IMG/VR virus record: IMGVR_UViG_3300042922_000850
Location: 62,001 to 126,000 of that record
Strand: one strand, 5' to 3'
DNA length: 64,000 nt
Origin: a virus
Shown here piece after piece: positions 25,892 to 64,000 of this stretch (its first letter is position 1; the number at the start of each line of letters is the position of its first letter). The translations under genes were made by a program, and so were the position numbers. The notes beneath the pieces are model-generated. The model was not told where the DNA came from. It made no database searches and was given only the letters and a program-made list of their open reading frames with translations.

Positions 25892-26809
25892 TCAGGCTTT
25901 TCTTGGAGATTTGTCAAAGAATATCGATCGCTTCGTATACGGGGTGACTTTGTGAACTCCGATATAATCTTGATTGGGATTTATAATTCTCTCTATTCTG
26001 TTCTTTTCTCCAAGTATCTCGGATTCTTTAATTGCTGCGGCAACATCATTATTTAACAACGGATAATGAGTCTCTTTATATCGCTGTAATTTATCATAAA
26101 TCTCCGGAGACCGCTTTGATCCTTGTTCTAAGTGTGTTAACTGTCTCTTTTTTGTTAAGTCCCCAGAAACTCCGTTATAACGAGAGATCCCACCCGACAT
26201 ATCAGTTATAAGATGGTTCCTTTTTGGGAATGCCAAGTTTTTCGGAAGGACATCTGATACTTTAATATTTTTTGGCAAATACTTACGAGAATGCTCATCT
26301 GTAATGCGGCGAATTTCTTTAATCTTCTTTTGATTTTTTGGTGTATCTCCAATTTCCTCAATCTCACCTACTATTCTATCAACAGTTCTCATCTCTTGTA
26401 GCTCTTTAATTTTACGCTCACCCTCATTAATAGGATGAGTGTGTAGATTTGAATAAGTGGAGTTATTGTTAATACGTGAATCCACTCTATGCTCTCTGAC
26501 CGGACCCGTTTTAATAGCCTTTACTTCACCTTTGTCTATCAGGGCAGCCAATTCTGTTTCACTTGGGAGTTTACGAGAAGTACTTTTTATTTTTTGATAT
26601 GCATTATTAGAAACATCTCCAAGCCCCATTTTTGCCTCAGCAAGCTCTCTTCCCGCTAACGCATTACCCTTTCTATCTCTTAGTTTGCGAAGTGCCCACT
26701 TCCAATTACCATCTGGGACTAAGCGAACCTTTTTTGCAATCTCATGGGCTTTACTTGCGGTTAAGGCCTCTTTATATATTTCGTTCTCATAATGAACCAC
26801 TTTATCCAC
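25892..26809 (-). CDS. hypothetical protein with IYKEA N-terminal motif, possible virion protein
   Basis: 305 aa. I chose the GTG at 26809, after AAGGAAGGAG, because it gives MDKVVHYENEIYKEAL, closely matching MDKIAAYEELIYKEAS of the minus-strand protein at 33547. The rest is basic, Lys/Arg/Asn/His-rich and low in hydrophobics, typical of an extended nucleic-acid-binding or internal virion protein. It has its own leftward promoter in the array of rightward cassettes. Confidence 0.7.
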   Translation of the reverse strand: MDKVVHYENEIYKEALTASKAHEIAKKVRLVPDGNWKWALRKLRDRKGNALAGRELAEAKMGLGDVSNNAYQKIKSTSRKLPSETELAALIDKGEVKAIKTGPVREHRVDSRINNNSTYSNLHTHPINEGERKIKELQEMRTVDRIVGEIEEIGDTPKNQKKIKEIRRITDEHSRKYLPKNIKVSDVLPKNLAFPKRNHLITDMSGGISRYNGVSGDLTKKRQLTHLEQGSKRSPEIYDKLQRYKETHYPLLNNDVAAAIKESEILGEKNRIERIINPNQDYIGVHKVTPYTKRSIFFDKSPRKA

Positions 26810-26837
26810 GCCAACCACGCTCCTTCCTTTTGTAGTA

Positions 26838-26846
26838 ATTATATCA
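26838..26846 (-). promoter_or_regulatory. extended -10 promoter, leftward
   Basis: Minus strand GTGATATAATTA: TGA before TATAAT. The neighbouring ACCACG element lies about 12 bases further upstream. Expected to drive the gene starting at 26809. Confidence 0.55.
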
Positions 26847-26857
26847 CAAACCTGTCG

Positions 26858-26895
26858 ACCACGCACACCACGTTTTTCTGGTATAAGTAATAAAA
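26858..26895 (+). promoter_or_regulatory. ACCACG element and class I promoter motif
   Basis: ACCACGCACACCACGTTTT (26858-26876) leads directly into CTGGTATAAGTAATAAAA (motif from 26881). A second partial element, CCACGCCAACCACGC, lies at 26806-26820. Divergent with the leftward promoter at 26838. Confidence 0.6.
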
Positions 26896-26953
26896 GGAGG
26901 ATGTTAATGCCTTCTTTTGTAATCGACACAATAACAGAAAGGAGGGGCAGTTA

Positions 26954-32581: not shown

Positions 32582-33547
32582 TCATTTTTTTATTCCAAAT
32601 AAGCTACTAACATAATCGGATACATTCTTGCTAGCGACTATAGGGGCTCTTTTTTTGAAATTTTCTTCTGCTACTTGCTTTTCCATTTGGTCAGCAAGTT
32701 TTTTATCATAAACACCGCTATCACCATATTTTAAACCATAAGTTTCATAAGTTTTACCCTTCTGAAACTTCTTAGCGCCAGGATACATTTTTAAATATTT
32801 AGGGTCTGCAGTTTCTCCTGAAGTGGCCCGAAGTGCTTTATAGAAATTTCTTGTGTGCAAAGGAGCAACTGCAACATTAGCAGATTCCCTTGCAATTACT
32901 TTGGGAGATACGTGAGCACTATTGCCGATTTGCTCTGGCCGAAAATCATGTTTAATCATGCCATTCTTCTTGTTTTTTAATTTCTTCTCAACCTGTTGAG
33001 TAGCTCTGTTTTCATCTACTTCATGTCTAAGACTAATCGCCTTATTCCATTTATCAAAATCTTTTTTTACCGGTTTACTCATGCTAAAAACATGTTCTTT
33101 CTGATAAACATTATCTGCAAACTCTTGGTCAATTTTTGATTTTGATGGTGCATAAGCTACCCTGCTCTTCGACACAGATCCGGCACCGTCTTTTACTCCG
33201 GATATACTCCGAGAAGCGGCTTCAAAATTTACCTTCAGCGCTTTTTCAGCAGGATTAATACCCTTGCTTTTAAATTTTTGTTCGGCTACATATTCTGCAT
33301 TAGGCTTATGGATATCCTTAAACAGTGCTTTTCCATAAGTTAGTGGATTGGATGTTGTCTTAACCTTATAATCTTTAGCGATTGCTTTCGTTCCCTTTTC
33401 CAATCCCTTTAGTTCCCTGTTGTAATTTAGGATATTCTTTTTTACTAACTCTCTACGAGCAAGATCAGATAAAGTACCGAGTTCTCGTTTCCATGCTCTA
33501 CTGGCTTCTTTATAAATTAGTTCTTCATATGCTGCGATTTTATCCAT
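32582..33547 (-). CDS. hypothetical protein with IYKEA N-terminal motif, possible virion protein
   Basis: 321 aa, AAAGGAG upstream. The N-terminus MDKIAAYEELIYKEAS matches the product of the minus-strand gene starting at 26809, and both are long, basic, Lys-rich and poor in hydrophobic residues. The rest is unrecognised. The isolated minus-strand position with its own promoter parallels the 1169-aa protein, which also has KEA motifs, so the three could be expressed together late in infection. Confidence 0.75.
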   Translation of the reverse strand: MDKIAAYEELIYKEASRAWKRELGTLSDLARRELVKKNILNYNRELKGLEKGTKAIAKDYKVKTTSNPLTYGKALFKDIHKPNAEYVAEQKFKSKGINPAEKALKVNFEAASRSISGVKDGAGSVSKSRVAYAPSKSKIDQEFADNVYQKEHVFSMSKPVKKDFDKWNKAISLRHEVDENRATQQVEKKLKNKKNGMIKHDFRPEQIGNSAHVSPKVIARESANVAVAPLHTRNFYKALRATSGETADPKYLKMYPGAKKFQKGKTYETYGLKYGDSGVYDKKLADQMEKQVAEENFKKRAPIVASKNVSDYVSSLFGIKK

Positions 33548-49943: not shown

Positions 49944-52900
49944 ATGCAAGAAGAAAAAGATCGCGATAAGTTTACTCATTTGCACGTACATACCCAAGGT
50001 TCGTTAGCAGATTCTATGTTAAAAGAAATTGAACTTGCAAAAGCAATTAAAGCAAAAGGGATGCACGCAGTTGCGATTACAGATCACGGTAATATGTTCA
50101 ATGTAATAAAGTTCTATAAAGCTTGTAAGCGTGAGGGTATTAAGCCAATAATCGGTATGGAAGCTTATGTCGCCCCGAGATCTAATTTATTAAAACAACA
50201 TAAAATAGATGATGCAAATTACCATTTGGTTCTACTCGCAGAAAACAATGATGGTTATCAGAATTTAATGAGTATTGCTTCAGATTCATCAATTAACGGT
50301 ATGTACTATAGGCCTAGAACAGACAAGTCGAAACTAAGAGAATGGAGCAAAGGCATAATCGCTTTATCTGCTTGTTTAGGTGGAGAGGTTCAGCAATATA
50401 TTCTCGAAAAAGATTACAATACGGCAAAGAAAGTTGCTTTAGAATATCAAGATATTTTTGGAGTTGGTAATTTCTTTTTAGAATTGCAAGACCATGGCCT
50501 GCCTGAACAAAAGATGGTAAATGAAGCTTTGCTTAAAATGAGCAAGGAGACGAATATACCTCTGGTTTGCACAAATGACTGCCATTATCTAACCAATGGC
50601 GATTATGAGCCACACGACGTTCTCATGGCTATCCAAGCAAAGACCACAGTAGATAGCGAAAAACGAAAAAAGTATGGATCGGATCAATTCTATGTAAAAA
50701 CGCAAGAAGAAATGGAACAACTATTCAGTTATATCCCAGAGGCGCTTGAAAATACAGTAAAGATTGCAGAGCGATGTAATGTGGTAATTGATTTTCACTC
50801 TAATAAATTACCGCCATTCCGGTTACCGGCTAACTTTACTGGGACTAATTTCGAATATCTTATGATGCTTACGTATAAAGGTTTGAAGAAATTTTATGGT
50901 GAAATAACGCCAGAGATTAAAGAAAAAGCTGAATACGAAGCAAATGTTGTAAATGGTATGGGTTATGTAAATTACTTCTTAATTGTGTGGGACTTTTTCC
51001 GGTTCTGCATTGAGGGAACTGATGAACCAGGCCAACCAAGTCCTCCAGGATGGATACCAATTTTAACAGGTCCAGGCAGAGGAAGCGGAGCAGGAAGTAT
51101 TCTGTTATATGCCTTAGAAATTACTAAAATAGATCCAATAAGATATGACCTTTTGTTCGAGAGATTTTTAGACCCATCTCGTGTTTCCATGCCAGATGTG
51201 GATAGCGATTTCGAATATGAGAGAAGACAGGAGGTTATTGATTATGTAATTCGAAAATACGGAAGACAATCTGTGTGCCAGATTATAACGTACGGCACAT
51301 TAGCAGCAAGGGCCGCTATTCGAGCAGTTGGTAAAGCGCTTGATTTGCCGTATAGTATTTATGATGAAACGGCAAAAATGATACCGATTGAACCGGGGAT
51401 TACAATTAAAGATGCTCTGGAACAAAATCCAGATTTATTTCGTAAGTACGATAATGATGAAATCATACATCGTCTGCTTAATATTTCTATGAGACTAGAA
51501 GGACTACCGACTTATACAAGTACTCATGCTGCAGGTGTGTTAATCACGGATGATCGTGGAGTTACCGCACACGTTCCGGTTTGGGCAAATGAGGGCGCGA
51601 TTGTATCTCAATATGATATGAATATACTTGAAGAGTTAGGGCTTCTGAAAATGGACTTCCTTGGGCTTCGTACACTAGGAGTAATTCGAGAAGCTATGGA
51701 CATGATTAAGAAAAACCATGGGGTTACAGTTGACCTTGATCAGGTTTATCAATGTCTGGATATGGCTCCGCTACGATTACTTGAAGAAGGGAAGACAGAT
51801 GGTATTTTCCAGTTAGAAGGTGGCGGTCTAACTGAGTTTGTAAGAGAGTTAAAGCCAAAGAGCATGGAAGAGTGGATTGCTGTAATTTCTCTCTATCGCC
51901 CAGGACCAATGGATTCAATTCCACAATATATGGCCAATCGAAGAAACCCGGACCTTATCCAATATCCGTTCGAGGTATTACGAGAAGTGCTTGGGGAAAC
52001 CTTTGGAGTCCTCTGCTATCAAGAGCAATGTATGAAATCTGTTATTATTGTATCAGGATATGATAAATCCGACTCTGATGGCTTTCGTAAGGTTATTTCG
52101 AAGAAGAAGAAAGACCTAATCCCATTACATCGAAAATGGTTTATCGACGGAAGAAACCAAGTGGATTTGGACGAATACGGAAAGCAAAAGGACTATGGGC
52201 ACGTTATACCAGGAGGCATTACAAAAGGGCAAGCAAGAGAAGCTTTAGAGAGGTTCTTCGATAAGATGGAGGACTTTGGTAAATATGCTTTTAACAAATC
52301 CCATGCCGCAGCGTATGCCGTTGTTGGATATGTAACTGCGTGGCTGAAGTTCTATTATCCAGTAGAATTTATGGCGGCATTAATGAATTCTTTAGCAGGA
52401 GCTACAAAGCAAACAAAAACCGCTCGTTATATTAACCACTGCAGAAACAGTCTTGGTATTGATATTGTTGCACCAGATATTAACACGAGTGAGGAAAGAT
52501 TTGTTGCCACAGAAGATGGAAAAATCATCTTTACATTAAACGCAAAAAATGTATCAGCGACTAGCTTGCAAATCATTAAAGCGCAAAGAGCCACATCTAA
52601 ATTTAGAGACTTTGATGACTTTATACGCAGAACTCTCGACGGAGTGGGAAAACAAGATATTACTGCGTTCGCTTCTATAGGAGCATTTGATAGCCTTGGT
52701 AGCATAAGTTCACAAATCACTGCAGGAGCCGCCGATATTGCTGACAAGATGTCCAAAACCAAACAAGCAAGAGCCAGAGCAAGAAATTCGGGGAGAGCAT
52801 TTGAAATTGAAAAATGGTTAACCCTCGATGTAGCTATACCTTATGGTATAAAAGAGTTTCCGAACAGAGTTCGTTGGGCTTTGGAAAAAGAATATCTGGG

Positions 52901-53781: not shown

Positions 53782-54762
53782 TTGCTCGGTAAACCGTGGA
53801 CAGATGCAGATAAAGACTTCTTAATTAAGTCATACGCTGAAGAAAGTATCGAATACATATCTGATTATCTAGGCAGAAGTAAAAATGCTGTTATGGCCAA
53901 AGCCAGAGAACTTGACTTGAAAAAGATAGTCAAAAAGAATACTTGGACAGAACAAGAGATTTCTTATTTGGTAAAGATGTACCCTAAACAAAGTGCCAAA
54001 TACATCGCTAAGAAATTAGGGCGTGGGGTCGATGCGGTCTTCCGTATGGCACACAAAATGAATTTAACAAAGAAAAGGGGCAGAAAAGCAAAACCCAGAT
54101 GGACACAAGACGAAATATTCTACCTCACAAATTTATATGCAACAAAAGATATTAAAAAGATTGCGGAAAGATTAGGAAGAACGGAATCGGCTGTAATTCA
54201 TAAGGCTTCACAACTTCATTTATTCAGGGAGAAGAATTACAATCGAAACGGTGTTCCTTGGGCAGACTCGGAGTTCGATTATCTGAGAAAACACTATGCA
54301 ACAAAGAATACCGTAACGCTATCCATTGAGATGGATCGCCCAATAAGCACTATTCAGGAGTATGCAGCTAGGATGGGTATACACAAGAAAAGAGCCGCCG
54401 CACCTAAGCCACTTCGAAAAATAAGTCATGGCGGTATAGGGAAGTGGACGGATTGGGAATCGCAATATCTTAGAGAGACGTATGATATATTCCATTGGAA
54501 ACACATGCGTTATGATGCATTGTGTCGTTCTCCCAAGTCAATCAACAAAAGATTAAAAACCATGGGACTATACGAACTACGTGTACGAAGAGTTCGTAGT
54601 TATACGGTAGTTTTTTATTACCGAACAGAAGAAGAACTGAGACAAAAATGGGAATATGTGAATTTTTGGAAAGAGGTGACAAACGATGCTTACCCAGGAT
54701 CAAGAAAAGATGGCTACAGATTTCGAGGCAGCATTGCAGCAGTTGAAAGAGGCTGTAAGTAA
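53782..54762 (+). CDS. protein with five Myb/SANT-like helix-turn-helix repeats
   Basis: 326 aa with a TTG start after GGGGGAAG. Five consecutive repeats of 45-55 aa, each with a starting Trp and a third-helix basic patch: KPWTDADKDFLIKSY (about 4), NTWTEQEISYLVKMY (about 53), PRWTQDEIFYLTNLY (about 107), VPWADSEFDYLRKHY (about 161) and GKWTDWESQYLRETY (about 219). They are followed by GRS-KNAVMAKARELDL-type recognition helices. Multi-Myb arrays bind long DNA sites, suggesting an origin- or promoter-binding role. The 3' end overlaps the next gene by 77 bases. Confidence 0.8.
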   Translation: MLGKPWTDADKDFLIKSYAEESIEYISDYLGRSKNAVMAKARELDLKKIVKKNTWTEQEISYLVKMYPKQSAKYIAKKLGRGVDAVFRMAHKMNLTKKRGRKAKPRWTQDEIFYLTNLYATKDIKKIAERLGRTESAVIHKASQLHLFREKNYNRNGVPWADSEFDYLRKHYATKNTVTLSIEMDRPISTIQEYAARMGIHKKRAAAPKPLRKISHGGIGKWTDWESQYLRETYDIFHWKHMRYDALCRSPKSINKRLKTMGLYELRVRRVRSYTVVFYYRTEEELRQKWEYVNFWKEVTNDAYPGSRKDGYRFRGSIAAVERGCK

Positions 54763-55378
54763 AATGCGATTTAGAAAGGAAACTCTTCTAAACGACTCTG
54801 AAAAGTTACAAAAAGACATCGATGATTTAAAGATTGGTGATTATGATAAGGCAGCTATCCTGATGAATAAATTAGCAAACAATCAACGGGCAGCGGCAAG
54901 TGAACAGTTATCTAAATTAGGGACGATGGCGTTACAGTATACTTTTGGCCCTAACTATGAGATGCAAATTGAAATGGCAGGGACTTTGAAAAAGCCTAAA
55001 GCAGACATATGGTTTATTCAAGATGGAAAAGTCGATGAAAGAGAAGATCCGATGGAAGACAATGGTGGTGGCGTTGTCGATATTATTGGTTCCTCCATGC
55101 GCGTAGTGATTATGGATAACTATTCTGATGCTTCAAAAGGAATTCCTTATATTGATGGACCGATCCTATTTGATGAACCCTTCAAGATGGTTAGTAGTGA
55201 ATACATACCTCAAATGAGCGAATTTATTTCTAACGTAGCGAAGGATTTTAACCGACAGGTTATTGCGGTAACCCATAACGATTATCTATCATCTATGACA
55301 GACTCAAACATTTTTATCTCATTGGATGAGAACAAAAGGAGCGTTGTCGTTATACAAAAGAACAAAAAGGAGGAATAA
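54686..55378 (+). CDS. sbcC: SbcC/Rad50-like ATPase, C-terminal half
   Basis: 230 aa, AGAGGTGAC upstream. After an N-terminal coiled coil (about 1-75), the C-lobe of a Rad50-type ATPase is visible: a signature-like GGGVVDIIGSSMR (about 130-142), Walker B PILFDEPFKMVS (about 160-171) and the H-loop VIAVTHNDYL (about 192-201). Walker A is absent and is provided by the gene at 48624. The two halves, separated by 4.75 kb including dnaE, would assemble into one head. The strong ribosome site supports this start despite the 77-base overlap. Confidence 0.85.
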   Translation: MLTQDQEKMATDFEAALQQLKEAVSKMRFRKETLLNDSEKLQKDIDDLKIGDYDKAAILMNKLANNQRAAASEQLSKLGTMALQYTFGPNYEMQIEMAGTLKKPKADIWFIQDGKVDEREDPMEDNGGGVVDIIGSSMRVVIMDNYSDASKGIPYIDGPILFDEPFKMVSSEYIPQMSEFISNVAKDFNRQVIAVTHNDYLSSMTDSNIFISLDENKRSVVVIQKNKKEE

Positions 55379-55660
55379 ATGCCCATGCTATTATTCGGGA
55401 AGAAAGAAAGTGTTTGTGCACCAACCCCAAAGTATCGGACCGAAATTTCCAAATTGGTTGATGAGCGAAAAGCAGTACAAAATGTAATGCGGTTTATCTG
55501 TGATCCGGATTTGTATAATGTTTACCAGGATAAGTTACAGAATATTGATGCGGAACTTGGTTTACTATATAAAAAGGCTCGCACAGAAAACGAAAGGAAT
55601 GATCAGTTGTATGTTGTCACCTCAACTATTAAGCAATATCAAAAAAATCTTTATCAATAA
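55379..55660 (+). CDS. hypothetical coiled-coil protein
   Basis: 93 aa, starting directly at the previous stop, GGAGG upstream. Charged helices; LVDERKAVQNVMRFICDPD and KLQNIDAELGLLYKKAR. Possibly an accessory subunit for the ATPase. Overlaps the next gene by 50 bases. Confidence 0.6.
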   Translation: MPMLLFGKKESVCAPTPKYRTEISKLVDERKAVQNVMRFICDPDLYNVYQDKLQNIDAELGLLYKKARTENERNDQLYVVTSTIKQYQKNLYQ

Positions 55661-56075
55661 AATTGAATTGATGCAACAACGCGATGAATTACGAACCTCC
55701 GTCGCAAATGGAAAAGACTTTTTTTATAAGTACGCAAAGTCTGGTGATGGCAAGCTTCTTGGCGATGGTGCTCAAAGGATGTTGGAGATAATCCAGCGGA
55801 TAGCGGACATTGAGAGTGAAATAAAAAGGATGGATACTCTGATTATTTCAAACCTAGAAATGGAAATTAACCAAGTTAATTTTAAGTTTGTCATCCCGCA
55901 ACACCCAAATGATGCGGGCGATATTATACAAAGCACAGAATATTTTGTAACAAATGAGGATACTTCAAGAGAAAATAGCTTGGATATTAATGATTTATGG
56001 ACTATTATACTTTTGAAGGAGATGTTTGATGTTAAAAACGTTGAGCTAATTCCGAAAGAGAAAGGTGGTGAATAA
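55611..56075 (+). CDS. hypothetical protein
   Basis: 154 aa from ATG 55611 (AAAGGA about 12 bases upstream); an alternative ATG at 55671 has no ribosome site. Helical, with an IADIESEIKRMDTLI coiled coil in the middle, and a mixed C-terminus. Unrecognised. Confidence 0.55.
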   Translation: MLSPQLLSNIKKIFINKIELMQQRDELRTSVANGKDFFYKYAKSGDGKLLGDGAQRMLEIIQRIADIESEIKRMDTLIISNLEMEINQVNFKFVIPQHPNDAGDIIQSTEYFVTNEDTSRENSLDINDLWTIILLKEMFDVKNVELIPKEKGGE

Positions 56076-56076
56076 G

Positions 56077-56328
56077 ATGTTTATTAATTTTTACGATGAG
56101 TTAGAAATGATCGACGAGTTAAAACAGAGAGTTGGCGAACTTGTAGTTTTACACTATGAGTGTGAAGACTGCGGGACCGATCAGGTAACAGATGAGTTAG
56201 AGATAACTTCTGACATGATTGATGATTTACAAGCAGATGGATATTTTATGTGTAGTTGGCCTTGTACTGATTGCGGCGCAAACACTAAGTTTATGAGAAC
56301 AGACATGATGAGGGGAATTGAGTACTAG
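56077..56328 (+). CDS. small zinc-ribbon protein
   Basis: 83 aa from ATG 56077, AAAGGTGG upstream. CEDCGTDQ (about 29-36) and CSWPCTDCGANTKF (about 59-72) form one zinc ribbon. Acidic. Possibly a transcription-associated adaptor (inference). Confidence 0.65.
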   Translation: MFINFYDELEMIDELKQRVGELVVLHYECEDCGTDQVTDELEITSDMIDDLQADGYFMCSWPCTDCGANTKFMRTDMMRGIEY

Positions 56329-56348
56329 GCATACGGGGGTAAAGTGGA

Positions 56349-56489
56349 ATGTGTATTTTTAAGAAGGTTGCTACTGCTATATTAAAGTTCGTGACAGTAG
56401 TTGTTGTACCAGCTACATATCTTTTAATCAAAGGGTTCGTTGATTCTATGTTCCCGTCTTCTGCACGAGAAATATTTGAAAATTCATAA
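56349..56489 (+). CDS. short single-pass membrane peptide
   Basis: 46 aa; GGGGGT about 10 bases upstream. Basic N-terminus, membrane helix over about residues 8-28. The end overlaps an inverted repeat that runs into the next class I motif. Confidence 0.5.
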   Translation: MCIFKKVATAILKFVTVVVVPATYLLIKGFVDSMFPSSAREIFENS

Positions 56490-56519
56490 TCTCAAATATT
56501 TCTCGTATAAGAAAGGTGA
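56466..56519 (+). promoter_or_regulatory. hairpin overlapping a class I promoter motif
   Basis: CGAGAAATATTTGA (56466-56479) pairs with TCAAATATTTCTCG about ten bases on, whose last bases are the start of CTCGTATAAGAAAGG (motif from 56505). It may terminate the upstream transcript and start the next. Confidence 0.5.
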
Positions 56520-56670
56520 AGCGGGGCAACCCCGCCTGGAAACGATAATATACAGGCTTGTTATATAGTATGTTTGTAAGGTTAGCAAATAAAACAAATA
56601 ACCATATTATCAACGAAATACAAAATATAACTATAATACTAGGCTCTTGGCGGTTTGCCAAGAGCTATTT
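56512..56670 (+). ncRNA. candidate noncoding RNA of about 160 nt
   Basis: Between a class I motif and a terminator-like hairpin (56643-56665) there is no ribosome site and no credible frame. The segment opens with a GGGGCAACCCC stem-loop (about 56522-56533), has an AU-rich middle and ends in GCTCTTGGC-GGTTT-GCCAAGAGC, followed by TATTTATTT. The promoter-body-terminator layout supports a small RNA; structure and target are unknown. Confidence 0.5.
56643..56665 (+). terminator. terminator of candidate ncRNA
   Basis: GCTCTTGGC and GCCAAGAGC with a 5-nt loop, followed by TATTTATTT. Confidence 0.7.
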
Positions 56671-56688
56671 ATTTCATTAAATTTTATG

Positions 56689-56731
56689 GTATAAGAAAGA
56701 AAAGGTAGAGAAGACACGATTCTCTACCTTT
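56689..56731 (+). promoter_or_regulatory. class I promoter motif plus 5' hairpin
   Basis: GTATAAGAAAGAAAA; AAAGGTAGAGAA (56701-56712) pairs with TTCTCTACCTTT (56720-56731). Heads the operon with the acidic paralogue family. Confidence 0.65.
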
Positions 56732-56762
56732 AAATAATTTTATTTAAAGGAGGATAAAAACT

Positions 56763-57701
56763 ATGACTCAAAATTTAGAATCAGTTTTATCATTTTTATT
56801 AAGACCGGCGGTAGAATATAACCTGCCGCAGAAAAAATATTGGGGAACAGTGGTTAAAGAAAATTCAATGTTAGTTGCTTCTGGTAGTTTCACAATTGAA
56901 ATCGGGAACATTCATTTCGACAAAAAGCCAGATGGAGAGTATTTTAGTTTTCTGGAGAGCAAGTTTGCTGAGTTTGCATATCCGCTAAATCCGGCTCAGA
57001 TTCAAGAAAAAGTGAGTTCTCAGTGCAGCTTTGTTGGCAAGGTGGTATTCCCATTAACAAATATTATTAACCGGTTGTCTGATATCGATAAGCAACTCGT
57101 ACCTAATGGCAAGGATTCTATATTGAAACGCTGTAGACTTATCGTGTCTCCTGGGTTTTTAGAATCTGGAGATATGACACTAAAGTTTACAGACAATGGA
57201 AACGGGTGGGAATTCAAACATGCTTCTCTACCAAAACCAGTTCGCCTACACAAAGATTCTGTAATAGGACCTGACGGAATAAGAAAAGATACTGTGTACA
57301 GGTGCGAATTAAAAGATAGCGATGATCTTCTTGTAAATGTAATTGAACCGTATGGAAAAATGAGACTTGGTATTTTATATTCTCCAAAAGGATTTGTACC
57401 GGTGAATTTAGAGGAGATTAACCGAATGAGCGGTAAAATACCACCCGACATGATAATCTGTTCAAATATAATTGAACCGAACCCAATCCCGGCTCCACCA
57501 ATTCATTTAGACGCTAGTACAATGTTCGATTTATTAAATGTATTTTTAATGTGCCAGAACACAGAAAAGATAGAAATGCACTTACCTGATGATCCCAACA
57601 AACCGGTAATGTTTACTAACGTTCCTACGAGTGATGATGATTTAAGAATAAGAGTTGTTGTGGGAACGCTCAACCCGTTCTACGGAGCACAGAGGAGGTA
57701 A
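56763..57701 (+). CDS. hypothetical protein, possible clamp-like fold
   Basis: 312 aa, AAAGGAGG upstream. Mixed alpha/beta; the C-terminal KIEMHLPDDPNKPVMFTN ... LRIRVVVGTLNPF vaguely resembles the end of sliding clamps (K-P-V-x-I ... V-x-x-x-P), but length and N-terminus do not settle it. Otherwise unrecognised. First gene of the operon. Confidence 0.6.
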   Translation: MTQNLESVLSFLLRPAVEYNLPQKKYWGTVVKENSMLVASGSFTIEIGNIHFDKKPDGEYFSFLESKFAEFAYPLNPAQIQEKVSSQCSFVGKVVFPLTNIINRLSDIDKQLVPNGKDSILKRCRLIVSPGFLESGDMTLKFTDNGNGWEFKHASLPKPVRLHKDSVIGPDGIRKDTVYRCELKDSDDLLVNVIEPYGKMRLGILYSPKGFVPVNLEEINRMSGKIPPDMIICSNIIEPNPIPAPPIHLDASTMFDLLNVFLMCQNTEKIEMHLPDDPNKPVMFTNVPTSDDDLRIRVVVGTLNPFYGAQRR

Positions 57702-57708
57702 TTAGCTA

Positions 57709-58227
57709 GTGTATAGTACTTTTCATGAAAGGTTGGAAGAAGATGCGGATATTGACCTTGAGCACTTCAGTGTCTTGAGGCATACAGGCAAGGAGTTAAT
57801 AGCGCAAGGGGAGAATATCGCCTATCCAATTTTCGCATATGGATGGGACTATCTTCTTTCAAGTACGTTGATTACAATCCATAACAATGACTTCAGGAAG
57901 GAAGTTAAAACAAAGTATCAAGAGGCATTTATTGATGCGGATGACCTGGACTTCATTCCAAGTGTACTAGAAGTCGCAGATGCTATTGATGAATATAATA
58001 TGATTGTTATCCATGATTTTTATAAAAATAATGGATATTCTATCGATGATATTGATGTTATCATTGGAAATTATATTCAAGAGTTCTCATGCTCCATGGA
58101 GGATTGGGTTGAAGAAGTTTTTAGAGATTTTGGATACGCTTATTATGGTTCATCCGTAAGTCGGTGCCACGATATTACGGATGAATATGCTCCACAGAAT
58201 ATACTTCTAGTGGAATTTTTAAGATAG
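57709..58227 (+). CDS. acidic paralogue family protein 1
   Basis: 172 aa with a GTG start after GAGGAGG. The most diverged member of a tandem family; its C-terminal PQNILLVEFL corresponds to the DCQN(L/I)(L/I)L(P/Q) signature of the others. Rich in Asp and Glu. Function unknown. Confidence 0.6.
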   Translation: MYSTFHERLEEDADIDLEHFSVLRHTGKELIAQGENIAYPIFAYGWDYLLSSTLITIHNNDFRKEVKTKYQEAFIDADDLDFIPSVLEVADAIDEYNMIVIHDFYKNNGYSIDDIDVIIGNYIQEFSCSMEDWVEEVFRDFGYAYYGSSVSRCHDITDEYAPQNILLVEFLR

Positions 58228-58240
58228 GAGGCACTAATTT

Positions 58241-58885
58241 ATGAACAACCTCGCAATAAAAGGGGACCATTCCTTAGAAACTAGTGACACCCCACGGGTA
58301 TATTTCTATAACAAATATTATAATATGCCGGAAGCATACGACGCGGATACACTATGTAGTATGGTTATTAATCATCCACAGTATACAGAAGATAAGGAGG
58401 AGAACGAGAAGAGAATACTTCAAATCTATAATGATGTAATGGAACAGATGGGTGGCGAAGCTATCCCATCATTTATCGATATTACCGCTTCTGTTTCATC
58501 GTATAATGAAAATATATTTTATAATATAGCTGTTCTTCAAGTAATGGAAAATGGTTCATATTTGGATGTGGACGATATTGAGGAGCTGCTCGAAGAGGAA
58601 ACAACTTCCGTAATGGAGTGGTTTAGTTATAATTTAGAATATTGTAATTTGGATGACTCTATATTTGAACTGTTGCATAGAAATAAATTGTCCTTTTCGG
58701 TGTCTGAAGATGACTCACAATATGAAGATTTAATAAGAGTAGATGAGGTTGTTAGAACTTTGCCAGAAGGCGGAAAAGAATATGACATTATAATTGCTGA
58801 TTGCCAGAACATAATTCTCCCGTGCTTTGGAATTCGTGATTTCTTTTTACAAGACAACCTTATCTTATATAGACCTGGGGAGTGA
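58241..58885 (+). CDS. acidic paralogue family protein 2
   Basis: 214 aa, AGGAGG upstream. The region KRILQIYNDVMEQMGGEAIP, then SFIDITASVSSYNENIFYNIAVL, aligns with members 3-5, and the C-terminal IIADCQNIILPCFGIRDFF carries the family signature. Strongly acidic, with an EELLEEE run. Function unknown. Confidence 0.7.
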   Translation: MNNLAIKGDHSLETSDTPRVYFYNKYYNMPEAYDADTLCSMVINHPQYTEDKEENEKRILQIYNDVMEQMGGEAIPSFIDITASVSSYNENIFYNIAVLQVMENGSYLDVDDIEELLEEETTSVMEWFSYNLEYCNLDDSIFELLHRNKLSFSVSEDDSQYEDLIRVDEVVRTLPEGGKEYDIIIADCQNIILPCFGIRDFFLQDNLILYRPGE

Positions 58886-58889
58886 AAAA

Positions 58890-59546
58890 ATGTTTGATTT
58901 AGATTTTGTCAACAAAAGTTTGGGTTTATGCGACGAACCATACATGTCAAACGAAGATTTTCACAATCGGACAGAAGAAATACTAGGTTCGCTATTCTTA
59001 AGATCAAATTGCGTTACAAAAAAGGATTACCGAAAACATTGTGATTACATTTTCAAATCATATGAGATTAACTTTAAAGCTGTGGGTGGGCCGCCAGATA
59101 TTGAAGATATTATTCTTAATATTGAAACTGACAATTGGGAAAAAATGTTGGAACTTGGTAAATTAGATTTATGTTACGGACAAGGGAAACAGGGGTATTT
59201 AAAATTTATCAGCTATCAGGATTTTGAAAAAGACTTTATGGCGGAACAAGCAATTGAGAAATTGGCCGAAATGTGGTATACCGATTATCATTTTGAGGAT
59301 TCTGACGATATGTTCGAATATGTTATGAAAATCTTGAATGAGCACAATTTAGCATACACTTATCCAGAATCTAAATTGATTGAGTATCGCAAGGGTAAAA
59401 GAGAGATTGTTTGCTTCAACGACTGTCAGAATTTATTACTCCCGGAATGGCAGCTCCATATGATTATTTCGCGAGGTGGCAGCCATGAATATACAGCGGA
59501 TGAAATCAAAGCCCTGTTGAGTGTATCTATTATATCAAAAGATTAA
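58890..59546 (+). CDS. acidic paralogue family protein 3
   Basis: 218 aa from ATG 58890 after GGGGAG. Shares with members 2, 4 and 5 the order: helix with E-x-I-F/L, GGPPDIEDIILNIE, LGKLDLCYGQG and a C-terminal NDCQNLLLPEWQLHMI. Followed by DEIKALLSV. Function unknown. Confidence 0.7.
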   Translation: MFDLDFVNKSLGLCDEPYMSNEDFHNRTEEILGSLFLRSNCVTKKDYRKHCDYIFKSYEINFKAVGGPPDIEDIILNIETDNWEKMLELGKLDLCYGQGKQGYLKFISYQDFEKDFMAEQAIEKLAEMWYTDYHFEDSDDMFEYVMKILNEHNLAYTYPESKLIEYRKGKREIVCFNDCQNLLLPEWQLHMIISRGGSHEYTADEIKALLSVSIISKD

Positions 59547-59558
59547 GGAGGGAATTGT

Positions 59559-60209
59559 TTGAGCAATGAGATTTCTGTAAAAAACGATTATTCCGAGCAA
59601 TTTGAAAACTTAATGAGTAAGATAGTCTCCTCTTTTGTGGACAAAGAGGAGACTCGTTATAAAGCCCAAGAAAAAATAATCACGGATGCTTATATGGAGG
59701 TCTTAAATTATGGAGGAGATAGTGCGCCCGACTTTTCAGAAATTGTCTTGAATATAGAAGAGCGGAATTCCGATATATTGGCAGAACTAGCTGCTATGGA
59801 TATGGAATGCGGAATGATGTGTCCGGAGCACTCTCATCAAGAACTGACATCATATTTTATGGGGCCGGCAGAAGACGAAGAAGATAATTTGTACTCAGCA
59901 TATTTAAGTGCATGGTATGAAGAATACTCGGCAGAATTTCGTTATGAGCTACCATATTTTATAAGCACAGTTTTGGAAGAATTGGGCTTTTGTTATTTGA
60001 TTAGTGACGAGGCTGATGGGCCTAAAGATTATCAATATGGCTTATCGAATAACTTTGCCATTTATGTTAATGATGCACAAAATTTATTACTACAAGATTG
60101 GCATCTTAAAATACTTGCTGGAGACCGATTAGGTAACTACAGTTATACACAGCAAGATATAGAAAATTTGCTTAACATCAGATTTGATTCAAAACCAGAA
60201 AGGGGGTAA
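59559..60209 (+). CDS. acidic paralogue family protein 4
   Basis: 216 aa with a TTG start after GGAGGG. Motifs APDFSEIVLNIE, LAAMDMECGMM and VNDAQNLLLQDWHLKIL align with member 3 throughout, and the tail (QQDIENLLNI) as well. A 12-bp perfect inverted repeat (59624-59635 with 59643-59654) is in the coding sequence. Function unknown. Confidence 0.7.
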   Translation: MSNEISVKNDYSEQFENLMSKIVSSFVDKEETRYKAQEKIITDAYMEVLNYGGDSAPDFSEIVLNIEERNSDILAELAAMDMECGMMCPEHSHQELTSYFMGPAEDEEDNLYSAYLSAWYEEYSAEFRYELPYFISTVLEELGFCYLISDEADGPKDYQYGLSNNFAIYVNDAQNLLLQDWHLKILAGDRLGNYSYTQQDIENLLNIRFDSKPERG

Positions 60210-60214
60210 ATAAT

Positions 60215-60844
60215 TTGTATGCTGTTGAAGAATCTAAAGAAACGCAACTATGCAGTTTCTACGAGGGGCGATTAGATGAATTGCTCGATGACATGTTTCT
60301 CGGGGAAAGCTGGATCGAGACACCTGAAGATTGGGAGCGCAAGGAAGAGAAGTTGATGGAAATCTATCAGGAGGTATGGACCAATGAGCTTGTTACAAAA
60401 ACAGCCGTGCCGGAATTATCAGATATTTTAGATGCTGTTTACGATCACAATATGGAAATACAATCAGAAATTGTGGCTCTCGATCTTGAATACGGCCAAT
60501 ATGGTGAACGGTCATTTTATGTAGAAGACTTTTACGACGATAAAGAAGATGCCCAAGAAGCTGTAGAAGAGGCTTGGGAAAACGACCTCAATATAGAGAC
60601 TAATTATATGTACAACACAGATAGTTTGGTATTAAAAATATTGCATAAATTAAAATGCTCTTTCTTGGCAAACGAACAGACATTGCACGAATTCTTTTGT
60701 GAAGACTGGCCAGAGGGGTGTGATGCAGTAGTTGGTGATTGCCAGAATTTATTGCTTCCAGAATGGCATTTAGCGTCAATGCAAGAATATGAACACTCTG
60801 TGACAGACGAAGAAAGAATATTGGTACAATTGGTATCGAGGTGA
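60215..60844 (+). CDS. acidic paralogue family protein 5
   Basis: 209 aa with a TTG start after GGGGG. Motifs VPELSDILDAVYDHN, IVALDLEYGQYG and VGDCQNLLLPEWHLASM. The Glu/Asp content is especially high, with no compensating basic patch. Function unknown. Confidence 0.7.
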   Translation: MYAVEESKETQLCSFYEGRLDELLDDMFLGESWIETPEDWERKEEKLMEIYQEVWTNELVTKTAVPELSDILDAVYDHNMEIQSEIVALDLEYGQYGERSFYVEDFYDDKEDAQEAVEEAWENDLNIETNYMYNTDSLVLKILHKLKCSFLANEQTLHEFFCEDWPEGCDAVVGDCQNLLLPEWHLASMQEYEHSVTDEERILVQLVSR

Positions 60845-60848
60845 CGAC

Positions 60849-61214
60849 ATGAGTTATTTTTTAATACCGGACTACGGGACTCTTAATATAGGCTGTCCGT
60901 CAGGAGAAGATATATTAATCTATATGTACCGGGCTTACATGGATTGTTGCAAGCCGCATAAGGTATTTGGTTATCTCTCCGATACAGCGCCAAGTTTATT
61001 TGAGTTTTATGATAGTCTGACAGACCAAGTGCACTCATCAGATCGCAGAACATTTTTATTCCGAGGGATTGCATTAAACCGGGGAGAGCTAAGCGATCCA
61101 TATTTTGTGGAGATGCTTTTAAAAGACTTCCTGTTTCAATATACGAGAGATGATGGGATTGAGGGATGCGATTGCCAAAATATAATACTACAGGAGATGG
61201 TTGAAGATGAGTAG
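60849..61214 (+). CDS. acidic paralogue family protein 6, shortened
   Basis: 121 aa, GAGGTGAC upstream. It retains only the C-terminal DCQNIILQEM signature and a helical body (TAPSLFEFYDSLTDQV), and is much shorter than members 2-5. Overlaps the next gene by 8 bases. Confidence 0.6.
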   Translation: MSYFLIPDYGTLNIGCPSGEDILIYMYRAYMDCCKPHKVFGYLSDTAPSLFEFYDSLTDQVHSSDRRTFLFRGIALNRGELSDPYFVEMLLKDFLFQYTRDDGIEGCDCQNIILQEMVEDE

Positions 61215-61518
61215 AGAAAGCAAGATAATCGAGGAGAAGATACTCTCAGAATACTTCAAGATTATAAGTGAAGGATTTGTTCCTCAAACAAAAGCTTTAA
61301 GAGAAAAGGTAAAGTACCGTATGGATGTAGAATGTTTTGATCTTATATACGGTCAAACATTTGAAGACGAGATAACGGAAAACGCAATACACGATGTTCT
61401 GTCGCTTTATAAGCATGTGCATTATCATGACGGAAAGCGGTTTTTCGAATGTCAAAACCCATTATTTTTCGAGTGGTTTTCTTATCAGAAAATTCTACTG
61501 CTAACACAAAATCCTTAA
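61207..61518 (+). CDS. acidic paralogue family protein 7, shortened
   Basis: 103 aa from ATG 61207, AGGAGATGG upstream. Contains CFDLIYGQTFEDE, the equivalent of the LDLxYGQ motif in members 3-5, and FECQNPLFFEWFSYQKI as a diverged C-terminal signature. The tandem array ends here. Confidence 0.6.
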   Translation: MSRESKIIEEKILSEYFKIISEGFVPQTKALREKVKYRMDVECFDLIYGQTFEDEITENAIHDVLSLYKHVHYHDGKRFFECQNPLFFEWFSYQKILLLTQNP

Positions 61519-61545
61519 TTATAAATGAGAGAGGATATATAGACT

Positions 61546-62286
61546 ATGATTAATACAAAATATCAAGCAGTAGAATGTTTTACGTTTTTGCAAAAGATTT
61601 GCTCCAGAAATGGATGTGAGGAATGTGAGGAGAAGTCATGCGGAGTTTTGTTTGTCGGCCAACACGCTTACTCTGCTACTGCCAATATTGTTGGGAGAAT
61701 AGGTGTTAATGATAATCTTCCGATGGACAATCCAATTTTCTGGAGCTACGGCAGGGAGGGAGAAATTAATCGCCCAAGCCAAGATAAGTTTCTACTAAAC
61801 ACGAAGGGATACATTAAAAATAATCCATCCATGGGAGCATTTTTAAGCAGCGGTTTTATAGATCGCTTTGATCATTACTTGAACAAAGCTCCTGCGAATG
61901 ATTTCCGTATTCGCAGGAAAGATCTATTGGATCACTTAGACAGTCAAGGCTTAAGTTCGGCAAAACAAAACAAAATGAAAATACAAATTGGCTCAGCATT
62001 AACGGACGTGACATTTAATGCTGAGCCAATTAAATGGACAAAGGCAATGGATAGTCCATTTTCATTTGAGTTGCCTCGCTTTGTATACCCTGGTACATAT
62101 CAAAAAAGCAATATCGATAAAAACGTGGTCTGTTCTATCAATTTGCTATCTTTCTATGAAATTATTGCAAATGGGTTTACAGAGTATGAAATTATCCGTA
62201 TTAAATACGACAACGCTGGCCCTGTTGTTATCGAGGGAAAAGCAAGAAATAAAAGTGAGGTTTTCTTTGCTGTATCTCAAATATGA
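61546..62286 (+). CDS. hypothetical protein, possible sliding-clamp-like fold
   Basis: 246 aa, AGAGGAT upstream. N-terminal Cys-rich CSRNGCEECEEKSC (about 19-32). The C-terminus AGPVVIEGKARNKSEVFFAV is like the last strand of PCNA/beta clamps, and the length equals that of PCNA, but the evidence is thin. The coding sequence carries a 16-bp perfect inverted repeat (61987-62002 with 62015-62030) and a 9-bp one at 61891-61917. Located just before the primase. Confidence 0.6.
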   Translation: MINTKYQAVECFTFLQKICSRNGCEECEEKSCGVLFVGQHAYSATANIVGRIGVNDNLPMDNPIFWSYGREGEINRPSQDKFLLNTKGYIKNNPSMGAFLSSGFIDRFDHYLNKAPANDFRIRRKDLLDHLDSQGLSSAKQNKMKIQIGSALTDVTFNAEPIKWTKAMDSPFSFELPRFVYPGTYQKSNIDKNVVCSINLLSFYEIIANGFTEYEIIRIKYDNAGPVVIEGKARNKSEVFFAVSQI

Positions 62287-62303
62287 TAACATAAAATTCT
62301 ATC

Positions 62304-62318
62304 GTATAAGTAACAAAA
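62304..62318 (+). promoter_or_regulatory. class I promoter motif with imperfect hairpin
   Basis: GTATAAGTAACAAAA; AGAGTATAGGA..AAGTG downstream pairs imperfectly with CACTTCCTATA..TACTCT (about 62324-62380). It lies about 95 bp upstream of the class II site, so the primase may have two promoters. Confidence 0.55.
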
Positions 62319-62398
62319 CAGGGAGAGTATAGGATAAAGTGGGCTAAAAAATAAAGTCACTTCCTATATTTTTACTCTTTAAAAGTGCCATAACAAAG

Positions 62399-62407
62399 TG
62401 GTATAAT
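62399..62407 (+). promoter_or_regulatory. class II extended -10 promoter
   Basis: CATAACAAAGTGGTATAATAAAA region: TGG then TATAAT at 62402-62407, 35 bases before the primase start. Near-identical to the site at 48156. Confidence 0.65.
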
Positions 62408-62441
62408 AAAAATTACTGAAAGAATAGGGGGCCAAGGTCGC

Positions 62442-64000
62442 ATGAACAAAAAGGAATGGTATGAGCAAACAATAGAATTCATCACAAACGATCTTGAGGA
62501 TTTTTACCAGCATTTTTATAAAAATGATGAGAAAGGTTTTAAACTCGTTTCTATTGGGAGCGGTTACAGACTAAACCCATGTCCGGTATGTGGGCACAAC
62601 GATTGCGCAACTGTAGGAGAAGCCGTGAATTGTTTTTCTTGCCATTGGTCTGGTACCCATATTAGTGCATGGTACGAGTATGCTACAGGAGTGTTGGGTA
62701 TTCCGCTAAGGGATGCTATTGCGAAACTAGACATATTTACAGGTCTTAGATTTCCAAACTCAGCCGGTAGCAATATTGAGGACTATGCGCAGGAAATAGC
62801 TAGACAGAACATCTTAAGAGTTGCTGAAAAACACTATCATGAACAGCTGATAAAATGTACTCAAACATTTAATGTGGGAACCCGGTGGGTAACCCCGTTA
62901 GATTATCTCCTGAAAATAAGACAGAGAAAAATGACAACTATTGAAGATATGAAAATAGGCTTCATATCGAATTATTTTGATCTGCATAAACTACTTATTT
63001 CTATGGGGTATACCAAACAACAAATCAAAGATGCAAAAGCATGGGCTCCAGAAGGATTATTTATCTATTACTACAAAGATCCTCTTACAAAAGATATCAC
63101 GAGGATTAATACGAAAAACCCATTTCAAGCCAAGATACAGAAAAAAGATGATAGTGGCAGCACCATCGAGGGCGATGTTATTCAAGGATACTCAGTTGGT
63201 GATAAAGTGCCAATGTTTACCCCGCGGTTTTCTTTTAAGAAACCTTTTGTGGCGGTCGAAGGGGAAAATGACCTCGGTGCAATTTACGAAAACGGAGCTA
63301 CTAATTCAAGTTGTATCGGTGGTAACCTTTCCGATGAACAATTTGAAGCTGCCTTCGAAAATGCTGAAAATATCATATATGTAATGTTCGACAATGATGA
63401 AAAGGGCAATGAATATGTTGATAGGATGAACAGGCTTCTTCCTGATAAAGATATAAGAAAGATTGAATATCCCTTGAATTTCAATGACCCAGATGATTAT
63501 TACCGAAGCCCCGAGGCTAAGCATATAGACATCTTGATAAAGGACGCGAAGAGACTTGAAACGGAAGGATATAAAATATCTCATATTGGCAATGCATGGA
63601 CAATTGCGAACCGCCACAGAAAAGTTGAATTTATTATCGATATGCACAGTTCCGACAAAGGTCAAATGGTCGGAACTGTGAATCTCTTTAGCGATGGAAT
63701 ATTAATTGATAGGGAAGTCGATAAGGACTTAACTAAATGCAAAGCTAATAAGAAGCCATTCAATTTTTATCTACATGATAAGATTAATGAGCACTTTAAT
63801 TCCGGATTAGGTGAAAAATCTGCTGATGAGCTAGCGGACATTTATTGGTGTTCTGCAAAGAAACAGGAAATTGTAAGGCGATTAGCTAAAATCTTATTTG
63901 ATTCAAATAATGATGATAAGATTGTTAATATGCTGAAGATAAAACTAAAGACTTCGGACGGAAGAGAGGATGTCATTGACGCTATTTTAAAAGAAGCTAA
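62442..64000 (+). CDS. DNA primase with CHC2-type zinc finger and TOPRIM domain (3' truncated by window)
   Basis: The frame is open from ATG 62442 to the window end (519 codons, no stop); GGGG is upstream. Residues about 47-67 (CPVCGHNDC ... CFSCHWSG) form the zinc finger. A TOPRIM domain follows: FVAVEGENDLGAIYENG (about 269-285) with the catalytic Glu, NLSDEQF, and VMFDNDEKGNEYVDRM (about 314-329) with D-x-D, then NDPDDYY. These are primase hallmarks. Whether a helicase domain follows, as in T7 gp4-like proteins, lies beyond the window. Works with the DnaE polymerase. Confidence 0.9.
   Translation, partial: MNKKEWYEQTIEFITNDLEDFYQHFYKNDEKGFKLVSIGSGYRLNPCPVCGHNDCATVGEAVNCFSCHWSGTHISAWYEYATGVLGIPLRDAIAKLDIFTGLRFPNSAGSNIEDYAQEIARQNILRVAEKHYHEQLIKCTQTFNVGTRWVTPLDYLLKIRQRKMTTIEDMKIGFISNYFDLHKLLISMGYTKQQIKDAKAWAPEGLFIYYYKDPLTKDITRINTKNPFQAKIQKKDDSGSTIEGDVIQGYSVGDKVPMFTPRFSFKKPFVAVEGENDLGAIYENGATNSSCIGGNLSDEQFEAAFENAENIIYVMFDNDEKGNEYVDRMNRLLPDKDIRKIEYPLNFNDPDDYYRSPEAKHIDILIKDAKRLETEGYKISHIGNAWTIANRHRKVEFIIDMHSSDKGQMVGTVNLFSDGILIDREVDKDLTKCKANKKPFNFYLHDKINEHFNSGLGEKSADELADIYWCSAKKQEIVRRLAKILFDSNNDDKIVNMLKIKLKTSDGREDVIDAILKEA

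What the first reader, a model, noticed from the sequence alone, without database searches (positions are those of the whole stretch)
57709..61518. Tandem family of seven acidic paralogues with a DCQN(L/I)(L/I)L signature
Seven adjacent genes end in variants of DCQNLLLPEW (PQNILLV, DCQNIILP, DCQNLLLP, DAQNLLLQ, DCQNLLLP, DCQNIILQ, ECQNPLFF). The four long ones also share a central LDLxYGQ-type motif and an upstream D-I/F-x-I/E helix. They are very acidic without basic patches, and the last two are shortened. Tandem expansion with rapid divergence is typical of arms-race genes; acidity raises the option of DNA mimicry against host nucleases or restriction enzymes. I recognise no known family.
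Basis: partly seen in the sequence, partly recalled or inferred. Interest (0 to 1): 0.8.

Follow-up and report, generated by a model that had tools for sequence, protein, structure and literature searches.

The report
Phage clamp with tandem clamp-binding proteins
This large phage appears to carry its own, very unusual DNA sliding clamp (the ring that holds replication machinery on DNA), and right behind it a row of seven related acidic proteins that each seem to carry a short tag for docking onto that ring, which would make the row a purpose-built set of clamp attachments whose individual jobs are unknown.

Summary
Seven contiguous co-directional genes (57709-61518), each with a ribosome-binding site, share a motif near the C-terminus. 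An eighth copy lies 62 kb away. No known family matches.

Two relatives in IMG/VR (terminase 65% and 56% identical) have the same array, five genes each, in the same place. There the motif reads QNELFEGF or Q[SG]xLF. The family-wide pattern is Q-x-x-[LMI]-[FL], essentially the sliding-clamp-binding motif. It occurs in 17 of 18 family members but in 11 of 413 other ORFs, and paralogues within one phage share its details.

I therefore predicted that the conserved gene directly upstream (56763-57701) is a sliding clamp. Its AlphaFold model, though of modest confidence, matched only sliding clamps among the top 50 PDB hits. The phage's SF2 helicase also ends in QLDMLDQF. No clamp loader was found.

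Best reading: a divergent phage clamp followed by a tandem family of acidic helical clamp ligands. They most likely act as clamp-tethered adaptors, in the manner of T4 gp33/gp55. Binding is predicted, not shown, and the job of each member is open. DNA mimicry against restriction has no support.

The parts
56642..56666 (+). Terminator-like hairpin (11 pairs) upstream of the clamp gene; likely boundary of the operon
   Evidence: Consensus scan only
56763..57701 (+). Predicted divergent sliding clamp, 312 aa, first gene of the cluster
   Evidence: AlphaFold2 model pLDDT 65.5, pTM 0.66; all 50 best PDB rows are sliding clamps; viral library mostly clamps and processivity factors; syntenic homologues in G005 and G006; no sequence-profile match to DnaN
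57709..58227 (+). g1, 172 aa, type-1 array member, QNILLVEF two residues from the end
   Evidence: Orthologue first in the G005 array, blastp 3e-11; motif
58241..58885 (+). g2, 214 aa, long member, CQNIILPCF
   Evidence: phmmer to g5 1e-7
58890..59546 (+). g3, 218 aa, long member, CQNLLLPEW; start is the ATG at 58890, not the TTG at 58827
   Evidence: phmmer to distal copy 5e-15, g4 2e-12, g5 7e-11; modelled as a helical bundle with a flexible tail
59559..60209 (+). g4, 216 aa, long member, AQNLLLQDW, TTG start
60215..60844 (+). g5, 209 aa, long member, CQNLLLPEW, TTG start
60849..61214 (+). g6, 121 aa, short member, CQNIILQEM near the end
   Evidence: Motif and position; short members at the same place in G005 and G006
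61207..61518 (+). g7, 103 aa, shortest member, CQNPLFFEW; start taken as the ATG at 61207
   Evidence: Orthologue last in the G005 array, blastp 9e-7; matches g3 over 26 residues
61546..62286 (+). 246-aa neighbour between array and primase-helicase; weak homologue at the same place in G006, absent from G005; possible second clamp-like subunit, untested
   Evidence: Pairwise blastp 8e-5 to the G006 gene; no profile match to the first clamp or to DnaN

Best explanation
The cluster is a sliding-clamp operon. The first gene encodes a divergent phage sliding clamp. The seven following genes encode a family of small acidic helical proteins, each with a short clamp-binding motif (Qxx[LMI][FL], usually with a hydrophobic residue three places on) on a flexible C-terminal tail. 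The motif docks in the hydrophobic pocket of the phage's own clamp and the helical body holds or blocks something else, so the array is a set of interchangeable clamp attachments. The most likely role is as adaptors or regulators that couple replicating phage DNA to other factors (transcription, repair, end processing), as T4 gp33/gp55 do on gp45, with paralogues competing for or sharing clamp subunits. Shown: genes, paralogy, arrays at the same place in two other phages, the motif and its within-phage similarity. Predicted from a model: the clamp fold of the neighbour and the body-plus-tail shape. Inferred: binding, use of the phage's own clamp, and the adaptor role (this last step at about 0.35).
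For: Motif Qxx[LMI][FL] in 17/18 members against 11/413 other ORFs; motif similarity within phages 22.3 against 10.2 between, 0/5000 within-type permutations as extreme. Positions 1, 4 and 5 are those that define bacterial clamp-binding motifs (PMC11139829; PMC12309361). The upstream gene was predicted to be a clamp before testing; its model hits only sliding clamps in the PDB top 50 and mostly clamps or processivity factors in the viral library. Clamp, array and primase-helicase are in the same order in three phages. The unrelated SF2 helicase ends in QLDMLDQF / QLKMLIEF / QLDMLNGF in three phages. Among nine long members the only invariant column is the motif Q. The motif lies in a low-confidence tail after a confident helical bundle.
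Against: No binding data and no complex prediction. The clamp model is of modest confidence (pLDDT 65.5, three sequences, TM-scores 0.2-0.35) and no sequence method links it to DnaN. Position 2 of the motif is N/S/G, not the usual aliphatic residue. The phage DnaE shows no such motif at the usual internal site. G005_5 has R instead of Q. The G006 helicase lacks the motif. Gene conversion of the tail could also make the motif alike within a phage.
Confidence: 0.6

Rival explanations
1. The proteins bind the host's beta clamp and shut down or redirect host replication, in the manner of Twort Gp168 or other phage clamp inhibitors; the tandem copies reflect an arms race.
For: The motif resembles the ligand motif of bacterial clamps; Gp168 shows that phages target host clamps (PMC11139829). 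Strong acidity could suit the positively charged clamp channel (inference).
Against: The array lies directly behind a phage gene with a predicted clamp fold in three phages; the motif differs between phages but agrees within each, which a conserved host pocket does not explain; position 2 is off the host optimum.
Confidence: 0.14
2. The motif binds some other common partner (for example an RNA polymerase surface, the SF2 helicase or the phage SSB-like protein), or is a structural element of the fold; the neighbouring clamp-like gene is incidental.
For: The clamp call rests on fold only; DnaE lacks the motif at the usual site; the primase-helicase and an SSB-like protein have their own conserved terminal-F tails, so other tail-mediated contacts probably exist in this replisome.
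Against: All 50 best PDB rows are clamps after an advance prediction; residue preferences at positions 1, 4 and 5 match clamp ligands; the motif is in a poorly ordered tail of the model, not in its core.
Confidence: 0.18
3. Acidic DNA mimics that inhibit host restriction or nucleases.
For: pI near 4 for most members; top fold row is Ocr, but at E 1.2 and probability 0.15.
Against: No significant fold or family match to any DNA mimic; g7 is only weakly acidic; mimicry does not explain the conserved tail motif or the fixed place beside a clamp gene.
Confidence: 0.05
4. Clamp chaperones or a substitute clamp loader: the proteins open, hold or unload the ring, because the phage has a clamp but no recognisable loader.
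For: No PF13177 loader in any of the three phages while all 14 controls ring; no loader-like Walker A protein noticed.
Against: Array proteins lack any ATPase signature; the host loader may serve; nothing direct.
Confidence: 0.08

Closest known systems
T4 gp33 and gp55 (late-transcription factors tethered to sliding clamp gp45)
   Same: [quoted passage not shown] the epitope is near-identical among unrelated clamp clients of one phage (PMC2988020).
   Different: No sequence relation shown; here there is a tandem family of seven paralogues next to the clamp gene, the motif is of the bacterial QxxLF type, and no link to RNA polymerase was tested.
Bacterial beta-clamp-binding proteins (QL[SD]LF motif)
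   Same: Q at 1, L/M at 4, F/L at 5, acidic flanks, often on a flexible tail (PMC11139829).
   Different: Position 2 is N, S or G; an extra hydrophobic residue usually follows at position 8; a few members have I at position 4 and one has R at position 1; the carrier proteins belong to no known family.
Staphylococcus phage Twort Gp168 and other phage clamp inhibitors
   Same: Phage protein proposed to act on a sliding clamp.
   Different: Gp168 acts on the host clamp in the DNA channel, not the canonical pocket (PMC11139829); here the partner is probably the phage clamp and the contact a linear motif.
Sliding clamps (PCNA, DnaN beta, gp45)
   Same: Predicted fold of the 312-aa upstream protein.
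   Different: No sequence or profile similarity found; length lies between two-domain PCNA and three-domain DnaN; domain count and ring stoichiometry unresolved.

Membership tests
Sliding clamp (gene 56763-57701) | Processivity-clamp fold | tested here: met
   All 50 best PDB rows are sliding clamps, best E 1.3e-4; viral library agrees. Caveat: model pLDDT 65.5, TM-scores 0.2-0.35, so met at fold level only.
Sliding clamp (gene 56763-57701) | Sequence profile of DnaN/PCNA families | tested here: not met
   No Pfam row at E <= 10; hhalign against 31 DnaN, probability 0.1; no PF02768 match. DnaN, PCNA and gp45 are themselves hardly alike in sequence (own knowledge), so this does not exclude the fold.
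Sliding clamp (gene 56763-57701) | Closed or openable ring around DNA, polymerase processivity | not testable with these tools
   Needs a structure or biochemistry.
Clamp-binding proteins (g1-g7) | Motif Q-aliphatic-x-[LM]-[FL] or Q-aliphatic-x-[LM]-x-[FL] | tested here: inconclusive
   Positions 1, 4 and 5 met in nearly all 18 members; position 2 is N/S/G, and some members have I at 4.
Clamp-binding proteins (g1-g7) | Motif accessible, in a tail or loop | tested here: met
   Residues 163-183 of g3 modelled below pLDDT 50 after a bundle at 85-93; prediction only.
Clamp-binding proteins (g1-g7) | Binding to a clamp | not testable with these tools
   No complex prediction or assay available.
T4 gp33/gp55-type clamp-tethered transcription factors | Binds RNA polymerase (flap or coiled coil) | not testable with these tools
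   No sequence or fold evidence either way; works-like analogy only.
DNA-mimic anti-restriction proteins | Fold or sequence match to a known DNA mimic | tested here: not met
   Only a non-significant Ocr row, E 1.2; no family match.

The most novel reading that the evidence does not exclude
A new phage replisome type: a loader-less, highly divergent (possibly heteromeric, if 61546-62286 is a second clamp subunit) sliding clamp with a dedicated tandem family of clamp ligands that diversified to give the clamp several alternative partners, with the docking motif co-evolving with the clamp within each phage.
Probability: 0.25. Interest if true: 0.82.

Novelty: new variant of a known kind. Interest (0 to 1): 0.64.

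Why it matters
Phages with their own sliding clamp are known, and so are single clamp-docked regulators (T4 gp33/gp55). A tandem family of clamp ligands encoded directly behind the clamp would be a new way to build and vary a replication hub. Because each phage tunes one motif across many paralogues, the arrays give natural series of clamp and peptide pairs for asking how clamp pockets and their ligands co-evolve. It also puts a testable function on at least eight unannotated genes and on a clamp candidate that sequence searches miss, and gives a handle (motif plus clamp-fold neighbour) for finding similar systems elsewhere.

Tried and rejected
Single-protein and five-member alignment searches of IMG/VR found no relatives because the conserved stretch is too short; tblastn of g3 and of the clamp in 50,697 phages found nothing. 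DnaE as bait led to contigs without synteny. Terminase as bait gave the two informative relatives; primase-helicase and SF2 helicase as bait added only a fragment without the array; GTDB genomes gave one contig with a partial terminase, filed under a Cyclobacteriaceae MAG. Weak Pfam/NCBIfam/PADLOC rows (Thy1, TBPIP_C, PglX and others) hit one paralogue each and were treated as chance. A sequence-profile link of the clamp to DnaN was tried and failed. The idea that 61546-62286 is a second clamp found no support from profiles and could not be modelled, the two structure jobs being spent. The DnaE polymerases showed no motif at the usual site. Rfam found no RNA family in 56000-62500.

Full report
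What was checked. The window is bases 62001-126000 of a 166,758-base IMG/VR virus record whose first and last 127 bases are identical, so it is probably complete. It encodes a contractile-tail phage: tail sheath, portal and terminase match PHROGs. A search of the whole record finds one further member at 57516-58187, 62 kb from the array.

Is it more than chance? g2-g5 and the distal copy are linked by direct similarity (most pairs E 1e-5 to 1e-14). g1, g6 and g7 are not found by a profile of the five long members and are tied in by the motif and by synteny. Across the three phages Qxx[LMI][FL] lies in the last 60 residues of 17 of 18 family members, against 9/173, 2/147 and 0/93 of the other non-overlapping ORFs.

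Relatives. Direct searches failed because only about eight residues are well conserved. Using the terminase as bait gave two records of useful size: G005 (IMGVR_UViG_3300009009_000002, 152,620 bases, terminase 65%) and G006 (IMGVR_UViG_3300020112_002303, 102,257 bases, 56%). Both carry an array of five genes in the same place, between homologues of the 312-aa gene (window 56763-57701) and of the primase-helicase. The order of sizes is kept: a type-1 gene first (172/145/143 aa), then long members (four, two and two), then a short one (121/112/137) and the shortest last (103/104/87). The first and last genes of this phage and G005 are recognisable orthologues (3e-11 and 9e-7); for G006 and for the short member I assign types by position, with at best weak similarity. 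No relatives turned up among 50,697 deposited phages.

The motif. In this phage it reads QN[LIP][LI][LF], often followed by PEW; in G005 QNELFE; in G006 Q[SG]xLF or QSIMF. The shared pattern is Q at 1, L/M/I at 4, F/L at 5 and usually a hydrophobic residue at 8. Positions 1, 4 and 5 are those that define the bacterial clamp-binding motif (PMC11139829; PMC12309361). Position 2 differs from the usual aliphatic residue. In the motif, different-type paralogues of one phage resemble each other more than same-type genes of different phages do (mean 15.3 against 9.6 for types 1, 6 and 7; overall 22.3 within and 10.2 between phages; 0 of 5000 within-type permutations reach the observed difference), although outside the motif g1 and g7 find their G005 counterparts and not each other. 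This is what selection by a phage-specific partner would give; gene conversion limited to the tail is an alternative.

Advance prediction and test. From the motif I noted that the conserved upstream gene might be a clamp. An AlphaFold2 model from three sequences (pLDDT 65.5, pTM 0.66) was compared with the PDB: each of the 50 best rows is a sliding clamp (archaeal and eukaryotic PCNA, bacterial beta, 9-1-1, ASFV PCNA; ten at E <= 1e-3). The viral library gives mostly phage beta clamps, viral PCNAs and herpesvirus processivity factors. A second model of similar confidence, that of g3, gives no significant row and no clamps among its listed hits, so the result is not a general property of weak models. 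TM-scores are low (0.2-0.35), perhaps because domain placement is poorly predicted; how many domains and subunits the ring has is open. No sequence-level method links it to DnaN.

Further support. The SF2 helicase, unrelated to the family, ends in QLDMLDQF in this phage, QLKMLIEF in G005 and QLDMLNGF in a fourth relative (L091), two or three residues from the C-terminus; G006 differs. QLDML fits the canonical clamp motif exactly. None of the three phages has a clamp of the DnaN type or a clamp-loader ATPase of family PF13177, which rings in all 14 control genomes.

How it may work. The model of g3 shows a confident helical bundle (residues about 21-96 and 118-151) followed by a weakly predicted tail that holds the motif. 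I read each protein as a body on a tether: the tail docks to the clamp, the acidic helical body binds or shields another factor. T4 gp33 and gp55 are the working analogy: their C-terminal epitopes and that of the polymerase are highly similar and interchangeable on gp45 (PMC2988020). Whether the bodies bind RNA polymerase, repair enzymes, nucleases or the clamp channel itself cannot be told here. Binding itself is inferred.

Limits. Three phages only; a fold-only clamp call from a modest model; no complex prediction; the polymerase's own clamp contact was not found.

Verdict. Real, not matched by any family library, and better explained than at first reading: a tandem family of predicted clamp ligands behind a predicted divergent clamp. 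I rate it a new variant of a known kind (phage clamp-docked factors), interest 0.64.

Noticed in passing
32582-33547 (-), 25892-26929 (-); also G000 50398-51297 and 53916-55757 (L007): At least four otherwise different proteins share a short segment MDKxAxYExxIYKEA, near the N-terminus in most; one in G005 has it too. Could be a virion-targeting or processing signal.
   Followed up: partly
61546-62286: Neighbour of the array with a weak homologue at the same place in G006 but not in G005; by eye its C-terminal third resembles a clamp domain. Profiles gave no support; not modelled.
   Followed up: partly
primase-helicase from 62442, continuing past the window end (L009:4442-7651): The primase-helicase ends in a conserved terminal F in three phages (..VTLF..DKLF..ESEF), acidic in two. 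Its protein found no relative in 50,697 phages.
   Followed up: partly
L005:15877-16782: SSB-like protein with a conserved cysteine cluster and a tail ending in ..VLF..ALF or ..APF in the three phages, like bacterial SSB tails; function guessed from the tail only.
   Followed up: no
G006 97686-101637 (L043, L044): The DnaE gene of G006 is split into two ORFs about 295 bases apart; an intron, insertion or assembly error is possible.
   Followed up: no
G000 53916-55757 (L007): A second SF2-type helicase ends in QNQLLFDLLKKS, another match to the clamp motif near a C-terminus, not seen in its G005 or G006 homologue.
   Followed up: no
L056 (PXCO01000272.1): A 4.2-kb contig filed under a Cyclobacteriaceae MAG encodes a partial terminase 75% identical to this phage's over 264 residues, so it may be a phage contig binned into that MAG.
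   Followed up: no
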